From a virus: a stretch of DNA of 64,000 nucleotides. The translations under genes and the position numbers were made by a program. The DNA lies in IMG/VR virus record IMGVR_UViG_3300044633_000899, positions 232,331 through 296,330 of that record; one strand, 5' to 3'. Below, one piece after another: positions 4,887-34,400 of the stretch. Position 1 is the stretch's first letter. Every line of letters begins with the position of its first letter. The notes below the pieces were generated by a model. It saw only the letters and a list, made by a program, of their open reading frames with translations, had not been told where the DNA came from and did no database searches.

Positions 4887-5260
4887 TTAAATTTAACACC
4901 ATCACTTGCGATAACATACCAATTACCTTCAAGAAACTGGAACTGAACACAGGCACCCTTCTCTAAAAGAAGTTCGTCCCATTCTTCATCTATAGAACCA
5001 ACATCAGTTTTAATTAAAACATTTGTTAGTGATTTAATTGTTATTTTATTTGTTTTTCCCGATTTTAAAGTAACTTCAGAATATTCAACGTCTTTAACAA
5101 TTAAAAATGACTCATCGTTAATTATGTAATTATCAACAGAAATTATTTTTTGTATTTCCGTTGGTTTTTCAACAACTACTTTTGGTTCAACAACCGTTTG
5201 TGTGTGATATCTAACAACATTTTTTCGTTGTGTGATATTTTCTACTCTTAATCCACCCAT
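4883..5260 (-). CDS. Small virion-associated protein downstream of the neck protein
   Basis: A 125-residue protein not assigned to a named family. The N-terminal 40 residues are basic and Val/Glu-rich and probably extended. Residues 45-125 alternate hydrophobic and polar positions (SFLIVKDVEYSEVTLKSG, then FLEGNWYVIASDG), suggesting a small beta-barrel of the kind found at the C-terminus of phage decoration or fibre proteins. Its start overlaps the stop of the gp13-like gene by one base, so the two are co-transcribed and probably translationally coupled. A head, neck or decoration role is inferred from that linkage. Confidence 0.55.
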   Translation of the reverse strand: MGGLRVENITQRKNVVRYHTQTVVEPKVVVEKPTEIQKIISVDNYIINDESFLIVKDVEYSEVTLKSGKTNKITIKSLTNVLIKTDVGSIDEEWDELLLEKGACVQFQFLEGNWYVIASDGVKFN

Positions 5261-6387
5261 TATATTACGTATATTTGTCTTGGCATCGCCCTAAATTTTA
5301 GGGATTTATTTAAATTTTCAGCAAGTAATGCTTCTCTTTCAATTACTTTGTCTGGTTTCAATCTTGTTAATCTTCCTTCAGCACCAATTAACTCATCAAT
5401 TAATTTTGTTTTTTCATCTTTCGCTTCAGTTGCAAGTGATGTGTAATCCATTGTTAAGTCACCGTCTGGTGTTTTTAAGTTACCACTGAATTTTCCACGT
5501 ACTCTAGAAAGTGTTTCTTTACAGTAAGCAATAAACCATCGTCTAACCCAAATTTGAGAGGGGTTATTTAAGTCCACCCAACTCATTTTATCAAATGGTA
5601 CATCAGAAGGTAATTTAATAATGTCTGGGTTGTCTTTTAAACATTTGTCTCTATCGGCAGGACCAACATCATAATACCAATACCAGACCTTTCCTTTTGT
5701 TAGTGTTCCATTACCAAAGTCAAATTTACCACCAGGTGTGTTCATTAAGTGTATCGCTTTTTTACCATCGGGTAACGCTGTTACTCTATATGTTAAATCA
5801 CCTGCGATAATTCTTCTTTGTATGTTTATTTCTTGCATTCTTAATAACATATCAAACGCCGGCATCATAAAATAACTTCCGGCCATATTACCCATTTGTG
5901 CAAGACCTCCGCCACCACCAAGACCACCTCCGGCACCTAACGCACCAAAAGACCAAGGGTCAAACATTGTATTATTTAATGTCGCTGGGGTAAACCATAG
6001 TAATTCGTTTAATTCACGATTGGCAGGTATTTCATATATTTGTTGGTTTGGTGCTAATTGAATGTAGTCTTTTTTTAAGACACTCTCACCGCCTGCTTGT
6101 AACCCAACAATTTTTGAGTAAGCATAAGTATATCTTGTTTCATAATCTAAACTTCTTGTCGTAAACGCTTTTGATAAAGATTGTGTGTCTAAGTTTAAAT
6201 TGTTTAATGCAGTCCATTGTGACTCAATTAACCAATCTTGTACATATTGTGAATATTCATCAATTGAGAACTCTAAAAGTGTATCCATTTGTTCGTCCTC
6301 TAACTCAACACTTCTCTGTGGAGCACCTAATAAATGTCTAACTTTTTTATATAAGTTACTTCTTTCTGGTTCGTCAATTATTCCCAT
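5260..6387 (-). CDS. 13: Neck protein, gp13-like head-tail connector component
   Basis: A 375-residue protein with features of the T4-type neck protein gp13. It has a charged helical N-terminus (YKKVRHLLGAPQRSVELEDE) and a central Gly-rich loop (GALGAGGGLGGGGG) near residue 150. The conserved C-terminal segment WVRRWFIAYCKETLSRVRG lies near residue 275 and precedes a helical tail. T4 gp13 has 309 residues; the excess here is mostly the Gly-rich loop and the C-terminus. It would sit between portal and tail and help seal the filled head. A TATTTAT element lies 13 bases upstream of the start. Naming as gp13 rests on remembered family patterns and genomic role. Confidence 0.65.
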   Translation of the reverse strand: MGIIDEPERSNLYKKVRHLLGAPQRSVELEDEQMDTLLEFSIDEYSQYVQDWLIESQWTALNNLNLDTQSLSKAFTTRSLDYETRYTYAYSKIVGLQAGGESVLKKDYIQLAPNQQIYEIPANRELNELLWFTPATLNNTMFDPWSFGALGAGGGLGGGGGLAQMGNMAGSYFMMPAFDMLLRMQEINIQRRIIAGDLTYRVTALPDGKKAIHLMNTPGGKFDFGNGTLTKGKVWYWYYDVGPADRDKCLKDNPDIIKLPSDVPFDKMSWVDLNNPSQIWVRRWFIAYCKETLSRVRGKFSGNLKTPDGDLTMDYTSLATEAKDEKTKLIDELIGAEGRLTRLKPDKVIEREALLAENLNKSLKFRAMPRQIYVI

Positions 6388-6423: not shown

Positions 6424-6870
6424 TTAACCGATTACCATTAATTTTGGGTTGTAGTTTCTAACTGGGTTTGCGTCACTTATGTTAAACGTTTTGTCTAACC
6501 ACACTTTTATAATTGATTCTGTTTGTTCTGGTGTTAATTTAAAAAAATTTTCTAACACCATCCAAAATTCAGAATTGTTAATAAACATTTTTTTTGTCAA
6601 TAGATTAAAAACTATCAAATTGTCATTTGGTTTTTTGCGAAACAACATTAAATTAGATGATGTTTTACTTATAACCGTTTCTAAATCGTTATACAAATTT
6701 AAAAACTCAAACGGATTGTTGTCAAACCCTTTTGATATGATTGTGTCAATACTATTAAAATATATTAATTTATTCCACCCCTCATTTTTAATCTTATTTT
6801 GGATGATTTCTTTTTCACTTAAAGATTCATTTAATCTTTTGTACTGACTTTCGGATATAATAATTTTCAT
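6424..6870 (-). CDS. Divergent member (A1) of the leader-bearing 'A' family
   Basis: A 148-residue protein beginning MKIIISESQYKRLNE. The leader ends in LNE, an I/L-x-E site like those cut by T4-type prohead proteases. The body keeps only the skeleton of the family domain: FEFLNLYNDLE (others have MDFLNLFNDLE), a central LFRKKPNDNLIVF and the helix ending in WLDKTF. It is the most diverged copy and the last of the minus-strand array. TATTTAT lies exactly four bases before its ATG. No enzyme motif is visible. Packaging inside the capsid is inferred from the leader; the body's function is unknown. Confidence 0.7.
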   Translation of the reverse strand: MKIIISESQYKRLNESLSEKEIIQNKIKNEGWNKLIYFNSIDTIISKGFDNNPFEFLNLYNDLETVISKTSSNLMLFRKKPNDNLIVFNLLTKKMFINNSEFWMVLENFFKLTPEQTESIIKVWLDKTFNISDANPVRNYNPKLMVIG

Positions 6871-6874
6871 ATTG

Positions 6875-6881
6875 ATAAATA
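6875..6881 (-). promoter_or_regulatory. TATTTAT four bases before the start of A1
   Basis: Minus-strand TATTTAT-CAAT-ATG. The four-base gap recurs in every member of the A family, so transcription from this element would begin at or near the start codon. Confidence 0.5.
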
Positions 6882-6891
6882 TTCTATTTTT

Positions 6892-7341
6892 TCAATTTGT
6901 AGACCTCATCCAATTGTCATCAACACCAATTATCAATGGTATGACATCCCTTAAATTGTGGGTCAACCATTTCTGTATAAGTTTCTGTATATTAGTGTAG
7001 TTAAGACCAAAGTTACCTTCCAAAACTGACCAAATTTCATTATAATTAATATAAACCTCATCACTTTCTCTATCGTGAATGATAAAATTATGACCTTTTT
7101 TAAAACGATATAATGTCCAATATTCTTCTTCTTCACTCTGAACCGATTCCAGATCATTAAATAAGTTTAAGAAATCCATTGGTTCTTTAATGTCAAAAAT
7201 TTCAAGAGTTTTATCCAAGGACCCAACAATCTTTGTTACAGATTCAAAACCAACCTTTTTTATTAAACCCAATAATTTTTCTTTTAAAGAAACGTTTTCT
7301 TTAATTAGTTTGTATTGACTTTCGGTGATGATAATTTTCAT
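6892..7341 (-). CDS. Leader-bearing 'A' family protein (A2)
   Basis: A 149-residue member of the array. The leader is MKIIITESQYKLIKE, with the I-K-E candidate cleavage site at residues 13-15. It is followed by VSLKEKLLGLIKK and the domain signatures VGSLDKTLEIFD, MDFLNLFNDLESVQSEE, LYRFKKGHNF and YINYNEIWSVLE. The fold looks mixed alpha/beta and soluble, with no Cys cluster or signal peptide, and is not assigned to a known family. The C-terminal helix (WLTHNLRDV) aligns with WLDEVYNLRGV of its paralogs. Its last codons come from a second, out-of-phase partial copy of the 3' repeat. It is clearly a duplicate of the downstream-numbered neighbours. Delivery into the host cell is inferred from the leader. 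Confidence 0.75.
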   Translation of the reverse strand: MKIIITESQYKLIKENVSLKEKLLGLIKKVGFESVTKIVGSLDKTLEIFDIKEPMDFLNLFNDLESVQSEEEEYWTLYRFKKGHNFIIHDRESDEVYINYNEIWSVLEGNFGLNYTNIQKLIQKWLTHNLRDVIPLIIGVDDNWMRSTN

Positions 7342-7345
7342 ATTG

Positions 7346-7352
7346 ATAAATA
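7346..7352 (-). promoter_or_regulatory. TATTTAT four bases before the start of A2
   Basis: Minus-strand TATTTAT-CAAT-ATG, same arrangement as the other A-family genes. Confidence 0.5.
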
Positions 7353-7377
7353 TTCTAATTTTTTTAAATTGTAGATA

Positions 7378-7827
7378 TCATTCAATTTTTCCAATTACTT
7401 CCGTGCTGTTTGCGTAGATTCTGACTCCCCTTAAATTGTAGACCTCACCCAACCATATCTCTATAATTTTCTGTCTTTCAGAAAATTTAAGACCAAATTT
7501 ATCTTCCAATACTGACCAAATTTCATCAGAATTGATATAAACAGAATCATTTTTTCTATCGTAAACCATAAAGTTATGACCTTTTCTATAACGATACAAT
7601 GTCCAATTTTCATCTTCCTCACTCTGAACCGATTCCAAATCATTAAATAAATTTAAGAAATCCATCGGTTCTTTGACATCAAAGATTTCAAATGTTTTAT
7701 CCAAAGATCCAACAATCTTTGTTACAGATTTAAAACCAACTTTTTTTATTAAACCCAACAATTTTTCCTTTAAAGAAACGTTTTCTTTGATTAGTTTGTA
7801 TTGACTTTCGGATATAATAATTTTCAT
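7378..7827 (-). CDS. Leader-bearing 'A' family protein (A3)
   Basis: A 149-residue protein that is nearly collinear with A2 and very similar to it. The leader is MKIIISESQYKLIKE (candidate cut after Glu15), then VSLKEKLLGLIKKVGFKS. Body signatures are VGSLDKTFEIFD, MDFLNLFNDLESVQSEED, LYRYRKGHNF, YINSDEIWSVLE and WLGEVYNLRGV. After this the sequence diverges completely into a 14-residue tail (RIYANSTEVIGKIE), where other members have unrelated tails. The stop is created by a second, shifted copy of the 3' repeat that starts 67 bases after the first. The body's function is unknown. Confidence 0.75.
   Translation of the reverse strand: MKIIISESQYKLIKENVSLKEKLLGLIKKVGFKSVTKIVGSLDKTFEIFDVKEPMDFLNLFNDLESVQSEEDENWTLYRYRKGHNFMVYDRKNDSVYINSDEIWSVLEDKFGLKFSERQKIIEIWLGEVYNLRGVRIYANSTEVIGKIE
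7422..7454 (-). repeat. 3' repeat copy inside A3 (one mismatch to the 38-base form)
   Basis: On the minus strand this stretch encodes WLGEVYNLRGV and matches the repeat in the dismutase gene and in the plus-strand gene at 51314, apart from one base in the compared core. A degenerate second copy follows 67 bases later, across the A3 stop. Confidence 0.75.
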
Positions 7828-7831
7828 ATTG

Positions 7832-7838
7832 ATAAATA
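7832..7838 (-). promoter_or_regulatory. TATTTAT four bases before the start of A3
   Basis: Minus-strand TATTTAT-CAAT-ATG. Confidence 0.5.
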
Positions 7839-7848
7839 TTCTAATTTT

Positions 7849-7869
7849 TTAAATTGTAGACCTCATCCA
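7849..7869 (-). repeat. Truncated 3' repeat copy at the end of the dismutase gene
   Basis: Twenty-one bases of the repeat core lie across the stop codon of the three-domain dismutase gene, 67 bases from the full copy at 7902-7939. The TGA stop of that gene is formed inside this second copy. Confidence 0.7.
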
Positions 7870-9386
7870 GTAAAGAAATCCATTGGCATAAATACAAATT
7901 TAGGTGTGACTCCCCTTAAATTGTAGACCTCATCCAACCACCTCTCTGTAAGTTTTTGTATTTCAGAGTAGTTAAGACCAAATTTATCTTCCAAAACTGA
8001 CCAAATTTCATCATAATTGATATAAACATAATCCTTTTTTCTATCGTAAATCATTATATTATGATCTTTTTTATAACGAAATAATATCCAATTTTCTTTT
8101 TCTTCAGATTGGGTACCTTTCAAATCATTAAATAGATGTAAGAAATCCATCGGTTCTTTAATGTCAAAAATTTTAAATAAATTATCCAAGGATCCAACAA
8201 TTTTTGTTACAGATTCAAAACCAACTTTTTTGATTAAACCCAATAATTTTTCTTTTAAAGATATTGATTCATTTAATGGTTTTTTATTATCCTCTTTTTT
8301 TGTTTTTGAGATATATAAATCATTAACAAATTCCCAATTAACACAATTCCAAAAGTTTTTAATATATTCGTCACGTTTATTTTGATATTTTAAATAATAC
8401 GCGTGTTCCCAGACATCCAACCCCAACAATGGATAACCACCATCTTTAATGATATTCATTAATGGATTATCTTGATTTGGTGTGGACATAATTTTAAGTC
8501 TATTTGTTTTTGTTAAGACAAGCCAAACCCAACCAGAACCAAATCTATCTTTTGCAATTTGGTTAAACTCATCTTTCATCTTTTTTATATTACCATATTG
8601 TTTGGTAATTTTATCAAAAATTTCACCCTTTGGTATTTGTTTCTTTGGTGACAACATCTTCCAAAACAAAGCGTGGTTAAAAGCACCCCCAGCGTTGTTT
8701 CGTACTTTCTCATCAAATTTACTAATTGATTTTATAATATCTTCTAATTCAAGATCTTTATGTTTTTTTTCAGATAAAGCATCATTTAATTTTTTAACAT
8801 AACCTTTATAATGTTTGTTGTAATGAATATCCATCGTTTTTGGATCAACAAATTGTTTTAATGCGGAATATGAATATGGTAATTTTTCAATACCAATTTT
8901 TTTCATTTCCATAATAAACTCTTCTTTGATGTTTTCTTTTTCCGTTAAGAGAATTTGTTCTGAGATAAGATTAATTTTATTAACTATTTTTTCTGAACAC
9001 TCAAAAACCAATTGATTATAATCTGGGTATTCTTTTTCAAACATTTTTATTAATCTACCAGCAAAAGCGTTTGCCTCATCTTCATTTTGACCACCAATAT
9101 CTGGTCCTCGTTCTCTACCTAAAGAAAAACGTTGGTGTGCGTGAACCCACTCGTGAGCCAAGGTTCTCATAATGTCACGATTTAATCTATTTTTTGATAA
9201 AATTTTTAATGTACCGTCCATACTCTGACTACCAGTTGACATTTGACCCATTTTATCACCCAAAAACAAAATTGTTAAATCTTGATTAACAGGATAATGA
9301 TTACCTAAAAACTTGATAAAATCATTGTACATTTTTTTATCGTTAGCATCAAGTCCAGAATCATTATGTTTAATTGTGATTTTCAT
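7863..9386 (-). CDS. Three-domain fusion: metallopeptidase-like, Fe/Mn superoxide dismutase, 'A' domain
   Basis: A 507-residue fusion. Residues 1-120 look like a zincin metallopeptidase: HEWVH at 78-82 and a downstream EANAFAG with Glu104, an arrangement like the M78 (ImmA/IrrE) family. Residues about 167-358 are a full-length Fe/Mn superoxide dismutase with all four metal ligands: His188 (IHYNKHY), His238 (FNHALFW), Asp324 and His328 (DVWEHAYY). Residues 374-495 are the domain shared with the neighbouring A genes. The N-terminus lacks the usual leader, but leader-like stretches lie at the domain junctions: ILLTEKENIKE at 145-155 and PLNESISLKE at 370-379, each with an I/L-x-E site. The dismutase would convert superoxide to peroxide and oxygen. 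Presence in the capsid and release of separate domains by the prohead protease are inference. Confidence 0.9.
   Translation of the reverse strand: MKITIKHNDSGLDANDKKMYNDFIKFLGNHYPVNQDLTILFLGDKMGQMSTGSQSMDGTLKILSKNRLNRDIMRTLAHEWVHAHQRFSLGRERGPDIGGQNEDEANAFAGRLIKMFEKEYPDYNQLVFECSEKIVNKINLISEQILLTEKENIKEEFIMEMKKIGIEKLPYSYSALKQFVDPKTMDIHYNKHYKGYVKKLNDALSEKKHKDLELEDIIKSISKFDEKVRNNAGGAFNHALFWKMLSPKKQIPKGEIFDKITKQYGNIKKMKDEFNQIAKDRFGSGWVWLVLTKTNRLKIMSTPNQDNPLMNIIKDGGYPLLGLDVWEHAYYLKYQNKRDEYIKNFWNCVNWEFVNDLYISKTKKEDNKKPLNESISLKEKLLGLIKKVGFESVTKIVGSLDNLFKIFDIKEPMDFLHLFNDLKGTQSEEKENWILFRYKKDHNIMIYDRKKDYVYINYDEIWSVLEDKFGLNYSEIQKLTERWLDEVYNLRGVTPKFVFMPMDFFTG
7902..7939 (-). repeat. 38-base 3' repeat, identical to plus-strand copies at 51.7 kb
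   Basis: This stretch is the exact reverse complement of the copies at 51687-51724 and 51756-51793. It encodes the end of the A domain (LDEVYNLRGVTP) in the dismutase fusion. Exact identity across 44 kb, while neighbouring sequence differs, suggests recent copying or recombination. Confidence 0.85.
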
Positions 9387-9390
9387 AATT

Positions 9391-9397
9391 ATAAATA
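9391..9397 (-). promoter_or_regulatory. TATTTAT four bases before the dismutase fusion start
   Basis: Minus-strand TATTTAT-AATT-ATG. The spacing is the same as for the other A genes although the coding start is unrelated. Confidence 0.5.
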
Positions 9398-9423
9398 TCT
9401 AATGATTGTAAAATATAGTTTTA

Positions 9424-9870
9424 TTAAATCATAGATATCATCCAATCCCAATTCTGAAAGTTCTCAAAAACCCAAGTCGGTCTGGTTCTCTTTAAATTGT
9501 AGGTATCATCCAACCAATCCTTAATAAGGTTACTTATATCATAATAGTTTGTTAAATGTTTCTGTTCTAAAACTGACCAAATGTCACCATAATTGATATA
9601 AACAGCATCACTTCTTCTGTCGTGAATCATAATGTTATAACCTTTTTTATAACGATATAATGTCCAAGATGGTCTTTCCTCACTCTGAATTACATCCAAT
9701 TCATTAAATAAATTTAAGAAATCCATCGGTTCTTTGATATCCAAAATTTCAAGTGTTTTATCCAAGGATCCAACAATTTTTGTTGTGGACTTAAAACCAA
9801 TTTTTTTAACTAAACCTAGTAATTTTTCTTTAATCGATTTATATTGATTTTCGGTTATAATAATTTTCAT
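9424..9870 (-). CDS. Leader-bearing 'A' family protein (A5)
   Basis: A 148-residue member. The leader MKIIITENQYKSIKE runs straight into KLLGLVKKIGFKS: the NVSLKE segment present in its paralogs is deleted, yet the I-K-E site at 13-15 is kept. This suggests the site is under selection. Body signatures are VGSLDKTLEILD, MDFLNLFNELDVIQSEE, LYRYKKGYNIMI, YINYGDIWSVLE and WLDDTYNLKR. A Trp/Phe-rich tail (TWVFENFQNWDW) unlike any other member follows. The 3' repeat copies are diverged here and spaced 68 bases. It sits between the dismutase fusion and A6, all on the minus strand. Function unknown. Confidence 0.75.
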   Translation of the reverse strand: MKIIITENQYKSIKEKLLGLVKKIGFKSTTKIVGSLDKTLEILDIKEPMDFLNLFNELDVIQSEERPSWTLYRYKKGYNIMIHDRRSDAVYINYGDIWSVLEQKHLTNYYDISNLIKDWLDDTYNLKRTRPTWVFENFQNWDWMISMI

Positions 9871-9874
9871 ATTG

Positions 9875-9881
9875 ATAAATA
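9875..9881 (-). promoter_or_regulatory. TATTTAT four bases before the start of A5
   Basis: Minus-strand TATTTAT-CAAT-ATG. Confidence 0.5.
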
Positions 9882-9891
9882 TTTCACTTTT

Positions 9892-10341
9892 TTAAATTGT
9901 GGTGTTGTGTATACCAACAATATGGTTATACGTTGTGATTCCCTTTAAATCATAGACCTCATCCAACCACGTTTCTACAAGGGTTGTAATGTCACCAAAG
10001 TTAATATCAAAATTATCTTCCAAAATTGTCCATATTTCGTCATAATTAATGAAAACATATTTAATTTTTCTATCGTAAATCATAAAATTATGACCTTTTT
10101 TATATCTATACAATACCCAATTTGGTTCTTCTTCACTCTGAACAACATCCAAATCATTAAATAAGTTCAAGAAATCCATTGGTTCTTTAATATCAAAGAT
10201 ATCAAAAGTTTTATCCAAAGACCCAACAACTCTTATCGTTGATTCAAATCCAACCTTTTTGATTAAACTCAATAATTTTTCTTTTAAAGAAACGTTTTCT
10301 TTGATTAGTTTGTATTGACTTTCGGTTATTATTATTCGCAT
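9892..10341 (-). CDS. Leader-bearing 'A' family protein (A6)
   Basis: A 149-residue member and the first of the minus-strand array. The leader is MRIIITESQYKLIKE, with candidate cleavage after Glu15, followed by NVSLKEKLLSLIKKVGF. Body signatures are VGSLDKTFDIFDI, MDFLNLFNDLDVVQSEE, LYRYKKGHNFMIYD, FINYDEIWTILED and WLDEVYDLKGI. The variable tail is TTYNHIVGIHNTTI. The gene ends 11 bases from the SNF2-like helicase stop region, both on the minus strand. Its TATTTAT element lies within or just past the end of that helicase gene, so it can be transcribed independently. The body's function is unknown; internal virion location is inferred. Confidence 0.75.
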   Translation of the reverse strand: MRIIITESQYKLIKENVSLKEKLLSLIKKVGFESTIRVVGSLDKTFDIFDIKEPMDFLNLFNDLDVVQSEEEPNWVLYRYKKGHNFMIYDRKIKYVFINYDEIWTILEDNFDINFGDITTLVETWLDEVYDLKGITTYNHIVGIHNTTI

Positions 10342-10352: not shown

Positions 10353-12110
10353 TTACATTTTTTGATTAATTGATTTTAAAATTTCTTCAACGGTATCACC
10401 AGGGTCTGAACTAACATCACCCATAACAGTACCAATTATTTTTTTCTTATTGTTTAATATGTCATAAATAGCACCCTCAATTGTGTTGATAAACAAAGGA
10501 TAATAAACCAATACATTATTTTTTTGACCATATCTGTACGCCCTATCTTCGGCTTGTGCGTGTTCCGCTGGGACAAAAGATAAGTCATTCATTATTACCG
10601 CTTCAGCCTTTGTTAGTGTTAAACCAACCCCCGCCGCTTTTAGATTTCCAACAAATACTTTTATCTTGTCGTTTTCTTGAAACTGGTCAACAGCATATTG
10701 TCTTTGTGTTTTATTACAACTACCATCCAAATAGACAGATTGTTTACCGAAGTGATTATGAATCATTTGTAACGTTTCCGTAAAGTTTGTAAAAATAATA
10801 ACTTTCTTATCTTGATCAATTATATTTTGGGCAAATTCAATTGTTTCTTTAACCTTTTCATTAGCAATCAATTTTCTAATTTGCATAAGTTTTGAAAATT
10901 GTACCGTTAACGACGACGACCCTTCTTCTTTATCCAACCACACATAATATTCACCCATAAGGTCTTTATACTCTTTTGATGTTGTTTTTAAATAAATTGG
11001 TGTTATTATCTTATCTGGTAAATCTAAAACCTCATCTTTTAACCTACGAAGAATTTGACCCGAAGTTCTTTCCCTTAGTTCTTCCAAGTTTGATGCACCA
11101 TTAACATTCCAAACCTTTCTATTGCCAGCCCTAAATTGATAACCTTCACAATAACGAATAGCATATGCCATCCAGTTTTGTGCAACAGGACTTTCAATCA
11201 AGTTTAATAAATTATAATAATTGATTGGTCTGTTTGTCATTGGTGTTCCCGTTAATAACCACAAATATTTGGCCTTTTTTGTAAAACTATTAATTATTTT
11301 TGTTCTGGCCGCCTGACTATTACTTACCATATGTGCCTCATCCAATATGATCAAATCAAAATTAATTTGACCTATAACCGAATCGTGGGGGTTTTTAATG
11401 TCATAAAAATTTTTTAAGATGTCATAATTAACAATTACAATGTCGTGTTCCGTTGAGAATTTTTTACCTTCCGCAATAAAAACAGATTTATCTGAATATA
11501 TTGCAATCTCTCGTTGCCAATTTATTTTAAGAGACGCGGGACAAACAACTAAAATCTTTTTCGCTTTGGTCTCAAGTGCTGCAATAATTGTGGAGCATGA
11601 CTTGCCAACGCCCATGTCATCCGCCAAAATAAACCTTTTTGACCCCACCAATTTCTCAATCGCTTCTTTTTGATGTGGTAATGGGGGTCTGTTGTCATAC
11701 TTTGAGTAATCAACCTCAACCTTTTCAATTGTATGTGATTTTATTAATGATGATTTTGGAATCCAAAATTCGGATAATTGATCCTTCTCAAAGAACTTAC
11801 CCCAAATATGGTAGGACTTATCTTTTTCAACTAATAATTTCTCAATGTAAATTTGTTTTGGTGTTTCAAGAAAATACCTTTCTTTAGCGAATTTTTCAGC
11901 AAAATACGTATCAAGGTCAACCCACTTTCTAGCGACTTTTGGGTTCGTACTATAATAATTTACAATATATTCCGCTTGAGTTCTAGTTGGGTAAAACTTT
12001 TTATTTGTTTGTTTTTTGACTTTCATATATAATATATGATTGTTCGCACCATCATATGTGTCCAATAATTCTAAAGCCTTATGTTCTATTAGTTGTTTTT
12101 GATTTTCCAA
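10353..12110 (-). CDS. SNF2-family DNA helicase/translocase
   Basis: A 585-residue two-lobed superfamily 2 ATPase. Lobe 1 shows the PHQ Q-motif-like start at 145, Walker A DDMGVGKS (164-171), DEAH (257-260) and TGTP (287-290). Lobe 2 shows FTNFTETL near 440, the GVGLTLTKA motif near 490 and the motif VI region AEDRAYRYGQ, characteristic of Swi2/Snf2 enzymes such as HepA/SMARCAL1. The first 140 residues are a family-unknown domain. It probably remodels forks or drives recombination, the niche of UvsW in T4. The only upstream start in frame is TTG at 12108-12110; the next ATG is codon 29. It is divergent from the tail-completion genes. Confidence 0.9.
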   Translation of the reverse strand: MENQKQLIEHKALELLDTYDGANNHILYMKVKKQTNKKFYPTRTQAEYIVNYYSTNPKVARKWVDLDTYFAEKFAKERYFLETPKQIYIEKLLVEKDKSYHIWGKFFEKDQLSEFWIPKSSLIKSHTIEKVEVDYSKYDNRPPLPHQKEAIEKLVGSKRFILADDMGVGKSCSTIIAALETKAKKILVVCPASLKINWQREIAIYSDKSVFIAEGKKFSTEHDIVIVNYDILKNFYDIKNPHDSVIGQINFDLIILDEAHMVSNSQAARTKIINSFTKKAKYLWLLTGTPMTNRPINYYNLLNLIESPVAQNWMAYAIRYCEGYQFRAGNRKVWNVNGASNLEELRERTSGQILRRLKDEVLDLPDKIITPIYLKTTSKEYKDLMGEYYVWLDKEEGSSSLTVQFSKLMQIRKLIANEKVKETIEFAQNIIDQDKKVIIFTNFTETLQMIHNHFGKQSVYLDGSCNKTQRQYAVDQFQENDKIKVFVGNLKAAGVGLTLTKAEAVIMNDLSFVPAEHAQAEDRAYRYGQKNNVLVYYPLFINTIEGAIYDILNNKKKIIGTVMGDVSSDPGDTVEEILKSINQKM

Positions 12111-28469: not shown

Positions 28470-31400
28470 CGGAGAAAATATATTAGTAGAATTTGATTAT
28501 GACAACGTATCGCTTATTGACCCAAACAAAGTTATTGATAATGACGGTAAAGTAAAAGATAGGTTAGTCAAACAAGAAAATTTGGTAATGTATGCCAACC
28601 TTGAATGTAGTGTTGTACCAAGAACCAAACTGGCGATTGGTGCGGCATTAAACGATAATGTACGAACAATATCTGTTGGTAAAATAAATTTCCTAAATCC
28701 AGGGTTTAAAACATTTTTGGACAATAACTGGTCTGATGAAATAACAGGTAAAGGAACGATTAAAGGTGTTGGTGTTAACCAACCAAAATTAAACGCGGTG
28801 AAAAACCCCCAAAAATCGGACGATTATTATATAACACAATCAACATATTCAAATGGAACTCCAGGTGCTGTTGACAATGGATTATTGGGTATTAAAACAA
28901 TTGATGTATCAATTGACAGTAGTTTTTACCCCCAAATTACAATAACATTAGAGGACGTTAAAGGTCGTGCTTTATTTGAGGGTGGAAATAGTTCACCATA
29001 CGCTGCGTTCTACCAATTACCCTACCCAATTTTTTATTTAACACTAAAGGGTTATTACGGTAAGGCGGTTAGAATGCCATTAATGTTACAAACATTTAAT
29101 TCTGTTTTTGACGGAACAACAGGTAATTTTAAAGTTACATTAAAATTATTTGGTTATAAATATGGTATTATGTCCTATGTAAATTGGGGACATATGTTAG
29201 CCGTTCCACATATGTATAATTCGTTTGTAAGTACAAATCAAGTATCACAAGGTAATCAACAAACTGGGGGTGAAAACGTAAAACCAATTGTTGTATCTAG
29301 GGGGTATCAGAAAATGAAAGAATTATATTCAGAATATAAATCAAAAGGTTTAATTGACGATGATTTCCCAGAATACAATTTATTTCAATTGAAAAGTAAA
29401 TTAGATAAATTTATTACGAATATATTAGAAAAATTTACAAAAGAAAACTTAGGACCATTAACTGAGTTAGACAATTATGCAACAATATTGACTGAACTAC
29501 AAAATAGAGTTTTCTTTAACGGGAAATCGTGGTTTGCAACATATTTGGACGAAAAAGAACCATTAGTTTTACTGGATGGAACTAAAGTATATGGTTTTAG
29601 GAAAGAATTTAACACACCACAAAAAAAAATAACAGCACTCACAGAACTAGGTGGGATTATAATAGAATTTAAACAAAAGTTAGATAATAATAGTGTTTGT
29701 GGGACAAACGGAAAATATATTGTTGGTGGTAAAGAAACTAGAGCACAAGTACCACTTAATGTTAGTGTAGATAATGTTATTAAAACAATAACAACCAACG
29801 ATGTTGATTTTAATAAATCAGCCCAAGAAACTTTTAAAAAGACAACGATATCTGATTTGGCATTAGTTGAATACATCGCAACAAAAACTCGTGATATTAA
29901 CGCTAATAAAAATTATTATATTTTTGATGGTAAATCAAATTTTAATGATATTTGTAATCAAGCGGCAAAAGATTTAAAATCTTTAAGAACTGAAATTGAA
30001 AAACAAATTGGTGACAATTTATCAGATCAATTAGCAAGAAAAGATAGTGGTATTGGGTTTAAACCAACAATAAGAAACATATTAGCGGTTTTCTTTGCAC
30101 AAGGTGAAGCGTTTTTAAGGTTAATGGATGATGTTCACCACTCGGCTTGGGACGTTAGAGATAATCCATATCGTAAAGCGTCAGTTTTTACCTCATCAAC
30201 AGCACAAAGTGTTGATGTTAAGAACTCACAAGAACAAGGAGAACCTATATACCCTTGGCCACAAATAATTATTGAAAATCAAACAGGTGAGGGTGAGAAA
30301 TTTGAATGTAAATACCCTGGTGATCCTAAAATATCAGCAATAACAAAGGCGTATATTCCAGAGTTATGGCCAGAAGTTGAGTTTGTTGAAGAATTTATTA
30401 AAGGTTTTATTGAAAGGGAGGAAACACAACCAGATTTAGGTGATACAAATAATAGTGAACAACAACCGAATAGATTAAGTTTAAATGCGTTAGACTTCCC
30501 GATATCAAACGAGGTTTTCCAAAATAAAGAAGAGGTTAAATTTTATTATGAAATTTACGAGAGGATTATGGTTAACACTTTTTTTTCAAAACTAAGTCGT
30601 ATTGATGGATACCAATCTAGTGTTTATTTGGTTGAATCTGAAAACGAAAAAATTAACGCATTAAAAAGTTTGGGTGTTGATAGTCCATTTTTAATTAAAA
30701 AACTAAAACAATATTTAATTGAAGGTGATAATTTTTTAACTTTTTTACGACATATATCAAATCAGGGTGAAGGTGAAAGTTGGCAAAAATTTATTAGAGG
30801 TGAGTTTGTTACACCGTATATTAAAAATAATACTGATGTACCATACCAATTGTTTAATAAAAATATATTAACAAATCCAACATCACAACCAAATGTGTCG
30901 GCAACACAACAAGCGAAAATTGAGGATTATATAAATGTGAAAACGTATAGTAATCAATATGATTTTACTGATATGTATCCAATTACGAATTTAGATTGGT
31001 GTAAAAACTATTTGGCAAATGGTAAATCAACAAATGGTGTCAATGATATTTTTAATACGAATAAAACGTTAGTATATAGTACAACACATAAAAACATAAC
31101 AAATTTTAGTGATACGGATAACGAAGATACTAAACGACCGATAACAAATTTTAACTACACTTCCGAAATTTTTAATCAGACACTCAACACGAATTTAAAA
31201 GAATTTTATGAAAATAGAAAAATTGAAGAACAATTTATTACCGAAGGAAACGTTTATTATAGTGGGTATAATGGTTATTTAACTCAAAACCAAACAACAT
31301 CAATGTTAAACACACCATATTTTATCAACGCGATACAAGATGGTGTATTTAATTTTAGGTTTAACGTGAAAGAAACCAGTCCATATAAAGCGGCAGCGTT

Positions 31401-34400
31401 TTTATTTATAAACAGTTTACCAGTTGCAACATTAAAAGAAAAATTTAAAACAAAAGATTCTGTAAATGATCTTGATTATATTGTGTCAACATTGAAAAAA
31501 TTTGGCGGTGTTCACAAGTTACCATATGTTTGGATATTAAAATACGGATCAATTTGGCATAGATATAAAGTTTGGAATAGAGAAGGTAAAGATATCTTAA
31601 ATAACGCTTGGAAAGACTTTAACTATTTAGGTAATTTTGATCCAGTAAATTCTGCATCAACAAAAACATATTCACTCAATATTAATAACACAACCAGAGA
31701 TATAACATTAACAAATAATTTAGGTACTGGAACATACACGACATACATTAATACTGGGTTTTACCCCAAGTTAATTGACGATATGAATGTGTTTTTACAG
31801 GGTTTAAAGTTGTTTAGTGGTGCAACACAAATAAATGGTACTTGTAGTGTGTTTGATAACACAATGGTTGTATCAACATTAAGTGATAATAATTTAACAG
31901 TTGGTCAAATAATTTCAGGACCAAACGTTGATATTGGTACGACAATAACAGGACAATTAAGTGGTACAACTGGTGGTGTTGGTATTTATACCGTATCACC
32001 ATCACAAAACACAACAACAACAATTAATGGTACTTGTAGTGTTTTAGATTCAACAATGGAAATCACCGATATAACTGGTGGTACATTAAACATTGGTGAT
32101 ATTATCGCAGGACCAAATATAATACCTGGAACAAAAATTACTGGTCAAATAGTAGAAACATCAAACCCAAATTTGGTATATACGATTAACAACAATCAAA
32201 ATTTAAGTGGTGAGGTATTCTTTGTCTCAAATCCAACTGATTTTTTTGTAACTAATGTATCATCAATTGGATATAGTCAAACAGATATTCAAACACTAAT
32301 TAACGACAAACAAATTGTATTAACGACAAACACTAACTCAAAGATATTAAAACCACTAGGTTTTGACCCAAATAATCCATCAAGATTATTAAATTTAACA
32401 CCTTGGTCTGTATTATCAAAAGTAAAAAATAAAGAAGAATATTATGTTATACCTTCATTCGGCACAACAAAAAACCAGATAAATAATGAATGTTTTAAAA
32501 ACAATAAACTAAAGATAGAACTTACTGGTAATACAGCAATGTTTAATGGATCAACGAGGTTGTTTTGGGGTGCACCAAACTACGGGTATTTTGATAATAA
32601 TAAATTAACAATACCAACACCCGATTCATATTTAAAACAAATTTTTAACGATAAAACAATACAAGAAAACTTCTCCATTAATGGGGATGTAACAAAATAC
32701 TCAAAAATCTCAGAAATATTTACAACATTTGAAACTGAGGTTTTGGATTATCTGGAAGAGGAATTTTTAAATTTTAGTAAGTCAATTTATGATTATAAAA
32801 CATTAATTCCTGGTCAAGAAGACGAGGAAACTGAAACCGATATCGCAATTAAAAATTTCCAATATCTAATGCGTTTAATTTTAAAAATTGAAAAACCAAC
32901 ATCACTTGAAACTGAAGGTTTGATAGATGAGGTTATTACAAAACAAAACGCAACCTTTGGTTCATATTTTAATAAATTAATGACATATGATTGTGTTTTA
33001 AAATTAGGTAATCCAACAATGTTTGATAAAAAATTGTTTTATACATTCTCAACTAAATTTATTCAAGATCCAATAACATTTAATGGTTACAGTCAAGGGA
33101 TTGGAGATGTATTACCAACAACAAACGGAACAATATCATTAGCACAATCAAAACAAATTAATCCCCAAACGTGGAAAGATTTAGAATATTATGTTGGGTT
33201 TTCGGAAATACCAAAATTAAAATATACAGACAACGGATCCTATATCACAGATTTCTTTGTTGATTTAAATGTTGAGTTTACACAAAAAAACGTAAAAGCG
33301 TTTGCACCAATTATAAAACTGTATGCAACACAAAAACTACAAGACCCAACTATTGACGCATCAAAATTTTATGGTGCGATGAATCTATATTTGGACAATT
33401 GTGAATTATATTTAAAAAATGTTATTGATGATTTAATGACGGGTATTAGAAATGAGTTACCAGATATTACAATAAATAGAGAAGATTTGAGTGCGAAGGC
33501 ACCATTAACAGGTGACCAGAGTAGAGATGAACTTTGGGATTCATTTAAGTCACTAAACGACACTTGGATTTCAGGTAGTGATTTTAAAACAAAAACATTA
33601 TTTGAGGATATTTTATTATTTGACAGAGCATGTAGAGACGTTGGTCAAAAAGTGTTGGTTGATATTTTTATGGTTAAAGATATGATTGAGGGTGGTCAAC
33701 CAAAAAGTAGTATGGAAAACATCATTAAATCCATTATTCAACCCTATTTCAGCATGTTTCCATTACCGGCCTATAGTAATTTCTACAACGCACAAGACGC
33801 GGTTAAAAACGCAACACCAAGTCCAGAAGGATCAACAGAGTTTGCCAACTCAATTTGGGGTACGTTTTTAAATGTTGATTATAGAAACACTTCACCAAAA
33901 TATTTGTGTTATTATAGAAATGTACCTAGCAATCATTTAGCGATGAATGATAATGCTGATTGTAAATTTAGGGATGATGCTTTTGATTTACGAAGAGCAA
34001 GTGATAATCCATTATTGGAAAATCAATTAAATAAAACAGACTGGGATAAATCAAATAAAGTTTGTGGTTTTAATGTTGATTTTAGTAATCAAAACCAACA
34101 GATATTTACACAATTTAATTTACAACAAAGTGTTGGTAAACCAACCGCGGAATCATTACAAATGATTAATCAAATGGCAAACACCACAAGAAATAGAAGT
34201 ACTGGTGTTCAAAACCCATCACTATATAATATCTATAAAAACAGAAGTTATGAATGTACTATAGATATGATGGGTAACGCACTGATGCAACCTATGATGT
34301 ACTTTAATCTAAGAAACGTACCAATGTTTAGTGGTCCATATATGATACAAAAGATTTCACATAGTATTAGTGAGGGTGAATTTAAAACTAGTGTTACAGG

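What the first reader, a model, noticed from the sequence alone, without database searches (positions are those of the whole stretch)
7863..9386. Phage-encoded fusion of metallopeptidase, superoxide dismutase and virion-associated domain
All four Fe/Mn-dismutase ligands are present, and the enzyme is fused to an ImmA/IrrE-like HEWVH zincin and to the domain of a leader-bearing family. This suggests that the phage delivers an antioxidant enzyme, and perhaps a protease against a host regulator, with its DNA. It could counter oxidative defence at the start of infection. I know of no such fusion.
Basis: partly seen in the sequence, partly recalled or inferred. Interest (0 to 1): 0.92.

Follow-up and report, generated by a model that had tools for sequence, protein, structure and literature searches.

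The report
Phage polyprotein carrying a superoxide dismutase
A large family of uncultured freshwater viruses of bacteria makes one long protein in which a metal-dependent protease, an antioxidant enzyme and an interchangeable last module are strung together at sites that look made to be cut while the virus head is built, so the pieces may be packed into the head and delivered with the DNA.

Summary
The fusion is real. ORF 7863-9386(-), 507 aa, is a HEWVH zincin-like domain (1-128), a complete Mn/Fe superoxide dismutase (161-360) and a copy of a domain found about 14 more times in this 296-kb T4-like phage record. It is no assembly join: 76 distinct zincin-SOD cores from many metagenomes keep the order, at one conserved locus. 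New here: the C-terminal module is interchangeable (none, this domain, or three other cargo types; up to five modules in series), with at least 13 changes on a tree. In the zincin-SOD linker two glutamates are invariant, and the residue two before each is always I or L; all 31 distinct SOD-cargo junctions also carry [IL]-x-E. That is the cleavage motif of the T4 prohead protease; this phage encodes such a protease. Over 30 other ORFs have leaders carrying [IL]-x-E, and the gene has the late-promoter-like motif those ORFs share. Best reading: a capsid-cargo polyprotein cut by the prohead protease, delivering an SOD, a peptidase and a swappable effector. Cleavage, packaging, injection and enzyme activity are inferred, not shown. 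'ImmA/IrrE-like' is not supported. It resembles T4 internal proteins and 'polyvalent proteins', but I found no described relative with SOD or this architecture.

The parts
7863..9386 (-). Fusion ORF, 507 aa: zincin - linker - Mn/Fe-SOD - junction - DUF module
   Evidence: same order in 76 distinct cores
9003..9386 (-). Zincin-like metallopeptidase domain, residues 1-128 (HEWVH 78-82, EDEAN 102-106)
   Evidence: AlphaFold2 model pLDDT 85.5, order beta-alpha-beta-beta-beta-alpha(HEXXH)-alpha(E); catalytic residues invariant
8907..9002 (-). Linker, residues 129-160, with two conserved [IL]-x-E sites, after E143 (8958-8960) and E160 (8907-8909)
   Evidence: E143 and E160 invariant; P3 is I or L in all distinct sequences; P2 variable
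8307..8906 (-). Mn/Fe superoxide dismutase, residues 161-360 (ligands H188, H238, D324, H328; Q305)
   Evidence: nearest cellular relatives Bacteroidota, up to 57% identity
8250..8306 (-). SOD-DUF junction, residues 361-379, with LNE373 and LKE379 sites
   Evidence: [IL]-x-E in 31 of 31 distinct junctions, background 31%
7866..8249 (-). C-terminal DUF module, residues 380-507, paralog of the tandem leader genes
   Evidence: AlphaFold2 model pLDDT 92.9, no PDB fold match
9390..9397 (-). Late-promoter-like octamer TATTTATA just upstream of the start codon
   Evidence: motif upstream of the fusion in 30 of 32 relatives and of 27 of 33 leader genes
6424..7827 (-). Three tandem paralog genes (6424-6870, 6892-7341, 7378-7827), leaders MKII(I/T)SESQYK ending LIKEN or RLNES
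9424..10341 (-). Two further tandem paralog genes with leaders (9424-9870, 9892-10341)
5260..6387 (-). Head-tail connector Ad2-like gene; conserved downstream neighbour
   Evidence: phrog_211, E 3.8e-10; synteny
10353..12110 (-). SNF2-type helicase; conserved upstream neighbour

Best explanation
The gene is expressed late and encodes a capsid-cargo polyprotein. During head assembly the precursor joins the prohead core, and the phage's own S77 prohead protease (T4 gp21 type, cuts after [IL]-x-E) cuts it in the zincin-SOD linker (after E143 and E160) and in the SOD-cargo junction (after E373 or E379). Cutting after E160 frees an SOD that starts MKKIGIEKLPYSY, a normal SOD N-terminus. The mature zincin peptidase, dismutase and last module would stay in the head and enter the cell with the DNA. 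There the SOD would blunt superoxide at the start of infection, and the zincin and the swappable module would act on host targets. Shown here: domains, intact catalytic residues, conservation of order, module exchange, motif conservation at boundaries, presence of the protease gene. Inferred: late timing, packaging, cleavage, injection, physiological role.
For: The core of 360 aa has ten invariant Glu columns. Only E143 and E160 have an exclusively I/L residue two before and a variable residue between, and both lie in or at the edge of the least conserved region. SOD-cargo junctions: 31 of 31 distinct carry [IL]-x-E and 74% carry two, against 31% and 7% for random phage windows; versions without a cargo end VNELYLLRTK with no site. 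The cargo changes at least 13 times on the tree, and four- and five-module chains keep a site at each boundary. The genome has an S77 prohead protease and a gp23 whose N-terminal region ends FLINE-ATGEG. Leaders: 29 of 33 carry [IL]-x-E at 10-34, against 8 of 32 at 41-65 of the same proteins and 69 of 263 other ORFs. A paralog gene sits next to the protease gene in the head cluster. Upstream motif TATTTAT: 27 of 33 leader genes, 67 of 256 others, 4.4% of random 60-mers; it precedes the fusion in 30 of 32 relatives. Synechococcus phage B23 has a stand-alone zincin that begins MNYKQFLRE-S, like a T4 capsid-targeting leader. The L/I-x-E specificity of gp21 and the role of such leaders: PMC9026906.
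Against: The fusion itself has no N-terminal leader, so how the precursor would enter the prohead is unknown. No proteomics exists for this family. [IL]-x-E is a short motif and also occurs inside folded parts of the modules (WLDETYNL). The sequences are related, so conservation counts are not independent events. Late timing rests on a motif, not on transcripts.
Confidence: 0.6

Rival explanations
1. The protein stays in the infected cell as one multi-domain enzyme: a late auxiliary SOD that protects the cell during phage production, with the other domains as partners. The [IL]-x-E sites are relics of fused leader genes.
For: SOD genes occur as ordinary stand-alone genes in other phages. The core has no N-terminal leader. 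DNA homology shows that the C-terminal module is a fused neighbour gene, which would bring a site along without any need for it.
Against: The linker sites are invariant across distinct sequences although the linker is otherwise variable. Junction sites persist through repeated cargo exchange. The upstream motif is the one shared with leader genes.
Confidence: 0.2
2. It is a polyvalent-type protein in which the zincin itself cuts the chain into parts, before or after injection.
For: Zincins are the hub domain of phage and plasmid polyvalent proteins and are proposed to process them (PMC5512222). The fold order matches that description.
Against: The boundary sites fit the specificity of T4-type prohead proteases and recur in leaders of proteins that have no zincin. 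There are two separate conserved sites in the linker rather than one.
Confidence: 0.12
3. The SOD fold serves as an oligomerisation or structural part of head or neck assembly, next to the head-tail connector gene, and the enzyme activity is incidental.
For: The fixed locus beside a head-tail connector gene.
Against: The ligand motifs are present in nearly all relatives (130-145 of 149 by motif search, some cut off by contig ends). Exchange of the C-terminal module does not fit a fixed structural part.
Confidence: 0.08

Closest known systems
T4 internal head proteins (IPI, IPII, IPIII, Alt) with capsid-targeting sequence
   Same: Late head cargo; [IL]-x-E sites of the gp21 type; a diverse set of cargo in one phage; T4 IPI counters a host restriction enzyme (PMC9026906, PMC3012670).
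   Different: T4 cargo are separate proteins, each with an N-terminal leader. Here several enzymes are in one chain with internal sites and no N-terminal leader, and one is an SOD. No virion data.
Polyvalent proteins of phages and conjugative elements (Iyer et al. 2017)
   Same: Several effector domains in one polypeptide, a zincin-like peptidase as common member, predicted delivery with the DNA (PMC5512222).
   Different: That paper does not mention superoxide (0 occurrences). Sites here point to the prohead protease rather than to the zincin. The module set differs.
Chlorovirus PBCV-1 Cu/Zn SOD (A245R)
   Same: A virus-encoded SOD expressed late and packaged in the virion; infected cells hold less superoxide than cells infected by a virus without it (PMC7019647).
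   Different: Cu/Zn type, unrelated to Mn/Fe-SOD; not described as a fusion; virus of a eukaryote.
SOD-like protein of Pseudomonas jumbo phage PA5oct (gp223)
   Same: Phage Fe/Mn-SOD homologue, marked ESI-MS/MS in its record, as are many structural proteins.
   Different: Stand-alone, about 27% identical. The same mark is on ribonucleotide reductase and thymidylate synthase, so virion location is uncertain.
Synechococcus phage B23 gp332 zincin
   Same: Related HEXXH..ENEAN domain (41% over 63 aa, 5e-6) with an N-terminal MNYKQFLRE-S leader-like start.
   Different: Stand-alone, 124 aa, no SOD.

Membership tests
Fe/Mn superoxide dismutase | Two Pfam domains and overall sequence similarity to solved SODs | tested here: met
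   Pfam 6e-40 and 4e-22; PDB 6gsc 1.8e-61
Fe/Mn superoxide dismutase | Four metal ligands H-H-D-H and second-sphere Gln | tested here: met
   H188, H238, D324, H328, Q305; motifs found in 130-145 of 149 relatives
Fe/Mn superoxide dismutase | Dismutase activity and bound Mn or Fe | not testable with these tools
   needs protein
ImmA/IrrE (Peptidase_M78) | Significant match to the M78 profile | tested here: not met
   3 of 21 members, best E 0.037; none for the window protein
Zincin-like metallopeptidase, gluzincin type | HEXXH on a helix plus a Glu on the next helix after a small sheet | tested here: met
   HEWVH and EDEAN invariant; model topology. Foldseek to PDB only weak: M61 peptidase E 0.04
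T4-type internal head protein with capsid-targeting leader | N-terminal targeting peptide ending in [IL]-x-E | tested here: not met
   The fusion starts directly with the zincin; such sites are internal only
T4-type internal head protein with capsid-targeting leader | Cleavage by the prohead protease and presence in virions | not testable with these tools
   sites conserved and protease gene present, but no peptide data
Polyvalent protein | Several effector domains in one polypeptide of a mobile element, often with a zincin-like peptidase | tested here: met
   2 to 5 modules including a zincin
Polyvalent protein | Zincin belongs to one of the 12 polyvalent clades | not tested
   clade alignments not available here
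PD-(D/E)XK nuclease (alternative cargo B) | E...D...(E/Q)xK signature | tested here: inconclusive
   Invariant E130, D170, Q183-V-K185 in alignment A4, but no significant Pfam, PHROG or PDB sequence match

The most novel reading that the evidence does not exclude
Phages of this group use the prohead protease to release interchangeable effector enzymes from beads-on-a-string polyproteins inside the capsid. A dismutase and a peptidase form the constant head of the string and the last one to three modules are swapped, so each virion injects a tailored enzyme set that includes an antioxidant.
Probability: 0.5. Interest if true: 0.85.

Novelty: new variant of a known kind. Interest (0 to 1): 0.72.

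Why it matters
If right, it would be the first phage known to me that delivers a superoxide dismutase with its DNA, which would suggest that superoxide matters in the first minutes of infection. It would also show a way to load many different enzymes into a capsid: one precursor with cleavage sites between swappable modules. It flags dozens of leader-bearing proteins in these phages as candidate injected effectors.

Tried and rejected
ImmA/IrrE membership rejected. The C-terminal DUF has no significant sequence or fold relative in Pfam, PHROGs or PDB. Alternative cargo modules have no significant family hit. The search for stand-alone copies of two alternative cargo types found only fused copies. 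The leader has no tblastn match in cultured phages, though Flavobacterium phage immuto has similar leaders (MKKQILSEQF..GIITE-S) and a gp23 N-terminal region ending IVSE-A. An internal start at the invariant M161 was considered; synonymous sites upstream are not specially conserved, so it is neither supported nor excluded. Alignment A2, with paralogs mixed in, was misaligned and not used. Other phage SODs (Vibrio phage 2.275, PA5oct) lack an obvious leader. Papers on an SOD in phage virions: none found.

Full report
WHAT IS THERE. The window is the last 64 kb of a 296,330-base virus record. It has a T4-like gene set: gp43-type DNA polymerase, tail sheath, head-tail connector, S77 prohead protease and gp23. 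The ORF at 7863-9386(-) encodes 507 aa. Residues 161-360 are a full Mn/Fe-SOD with all ligands (H188, H238, D324, H328) and the Mn-type Gln (Q305); its nearest cellular relatives are Bacteroidota, up to 57% identical. Residues 1-128 are a small zincin-like domain with HEWVH and EDEAN, modelled with mean pLDDT 85.5 for residues 1-157. It has no significant family in Pfam and no strong fold match. Residues about 369-507 are one copy of a paralogous domain present at about 14 other places in the record, five of them in tandem around this gene. That domain is modelled at pLDDT 92.9 and has no known fold relative.

NOT AN ARTEFACT. Viral contigs held 243 relatives of the whole protein and at least 561 of the zincin domain. 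Among the loci fetched, 149 ORFs join zincin and SOD in one frame, with 76 distinct cores; some contigs were fetched twice, so ORF counts are not independent. In the nine loci of different architecture that I examined, the gene lies between a SNF2-type helicase and a head-tail connector gene, wherever the contig reaches that far.

THE MODULES ARE EXCHANGED. Zincin-SOD is constant. What follows is nothing (ORFs of 360-365 aa), the DUF, or one of three other cargo types of about 340-380 aa. On a tree of the core, five tail states need 13 changes, several of them forced by well-supported branches; the window's own clade (support 100) holds DUF, cargo A and cargo B. Some relatives carry four or five modules, for example zincin-SOD-DUF-cargo B (821 aa) and zincin-SOD-DUF-DUF-cargo B (962 aa). 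Cargo B has a PD-(D/E)XK-like pattern of invariant residues and cargo A a weaker one; both are leads only. In the window the DUF module matches its neighbours at the DNA level from residue about 360-369 on. It therefore kept the second half of the neighbour's leader (LIKEN there, PLNES here) and lost the first.

THE BOUNDARIES LOOK LIKE CLEAVAGE SITES. The T4 prohead protease gp21 cuts after L/I-x-E (PMC9026906). In the zincin-SOD linker, the least conserved part of the core (mean top-residue frequency 0.61, against 0.70 and 0.88), E143 and E160 are invariant. The residue two before is I or L in every distinct sequence, in mixed proportion (45/31 and 43/33), and the residue between varies. None of the other eight invariant Glu columns of the core shows this. 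The residue after E160 is always Met, so a cut there leaves MKKIGIEKLPYSY, a usual SOD start; it may also mark the ancestral start codon. At the SOD-cargo junction, 31 of 31 distinct 32-mers hold [IL]-x-E (random windows of this phage's proteins: 31%) and 74% hold two (7%). A stricter form is in 87% against 7%. Forms without cargo lack the site. Two other fusions of the DUF in the same genome also keep the site: LIKEN in ORF 30782-31879 and QIKEG in ORF 100424-101947.

OTHER PARTS OF THE MACHINERY. The genome has an S77 prohead protease, with a paralog of the DUF close to it in the head cluster, and a gp23 whose N-terminal region ends FLINE-ATGEG, an expected cleavage position. At least 33 ORFs begin with leaders such as MKKIIRLTESDLTRIVKRVIKE or MKIIITESQYKLIKE, in front of largely unrelated bodies. 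An [IL]-x-E lies at 10-34 in 29 of 33, against 8 of 32 further in and 69 of 263 other ORFs. TATTTAT (with T or G first) lies within 60 bases upstream of 27 of 33 leader genes, 67 of 256 others and 4.4% of random 60-mers; the Bacteroidota-type TAnnTTTG is upstream of 0 of 33 leader genes. The fusion has the former in 30 of 32 relatives, and both exceptions are starts that I called too far in. A distant zincin in cultured Synechococcus phage B23 starts MNYKQFLRE-S.

HOW IT MOST LIKELY WORKS. A late precursor is taken into the prohead, cut by the prohead protease into peptidase, SOD and cargo, and the products enter the cell with the DNA. Late timing, targeting, cutting and injection are inference. 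The weak point is that the precursor has no N-terminal leader; the linker with EEF[IL]xE may do that job from inside. What the SOD is for is open: early superoxide in the host, or oxidants met by the particle in lit lake water. PBCV-1 shows that a virus can pack a late SOD in its virion and that infected cells then hold less superoxide (PMC7019647).

NOVELTY. Virion-delivered enzymes and multi-domain effectors of phages are known kinds. A superoxide dismutase in such a chain, and prohead-protease-type sites between exchangeable modules, are to my knowledge not described; ten paper searches of an open-access library found none, which does not cover subscription journals. I therefore call it a new variant of a known kind.

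Noticed in passing
6424-10341 (five tandem genes) and about nine more places in the record: A domain of about 130 aa is present in about 15 copies in one phage genome, mostly with the same leader and late-promoter-like motif; its modelled fold has no match in PDB.
   Followed up: partly
G000:C1:30782-31879 and 100424-101947 (outside the window): Two other ORFs carry the same domain at their C-terminus behind different bodies, with the leader's [IL]-x-E retained inside the chain.
   Followed up: partly
whole record: Leader ORFs share an upstream TATTTAT(A), the reverse complement of the T4 late octamer TATAAATA, while other ORFs sometimes have TAnnTTTG as in Bacteroidota promoters: a likely late/early split and a host hint.
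   Followed up: partly
G000:C1:110251-117788 (outside the window): A cluster of about a dozen leader-bearing ORFs with mostly unrelated bodies: candidate injected proteins.
   Followed up: no
L020:3603-5972 and L050:225-2300: The neighbouring helicase ORF in some relatives starts with or contains sequence that looks like an intein or homing-endonuclease insertion.
   Followed up: no
L298, 962-aa ORF: Five modules in one chain, zincin-SOD-DUF-DUF-cargo B, with an [IL]-x-E site at each SOD-side and DUF-side boundary.
   Followed up: yes
L285:1465-2013 (Pseudomonas phage PA5oct gp223): An SOD homologue annotated as hypothetical protein is marked ESI-MS/MS in its record and seems to keep the metal ligands.
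   Followed up: partly
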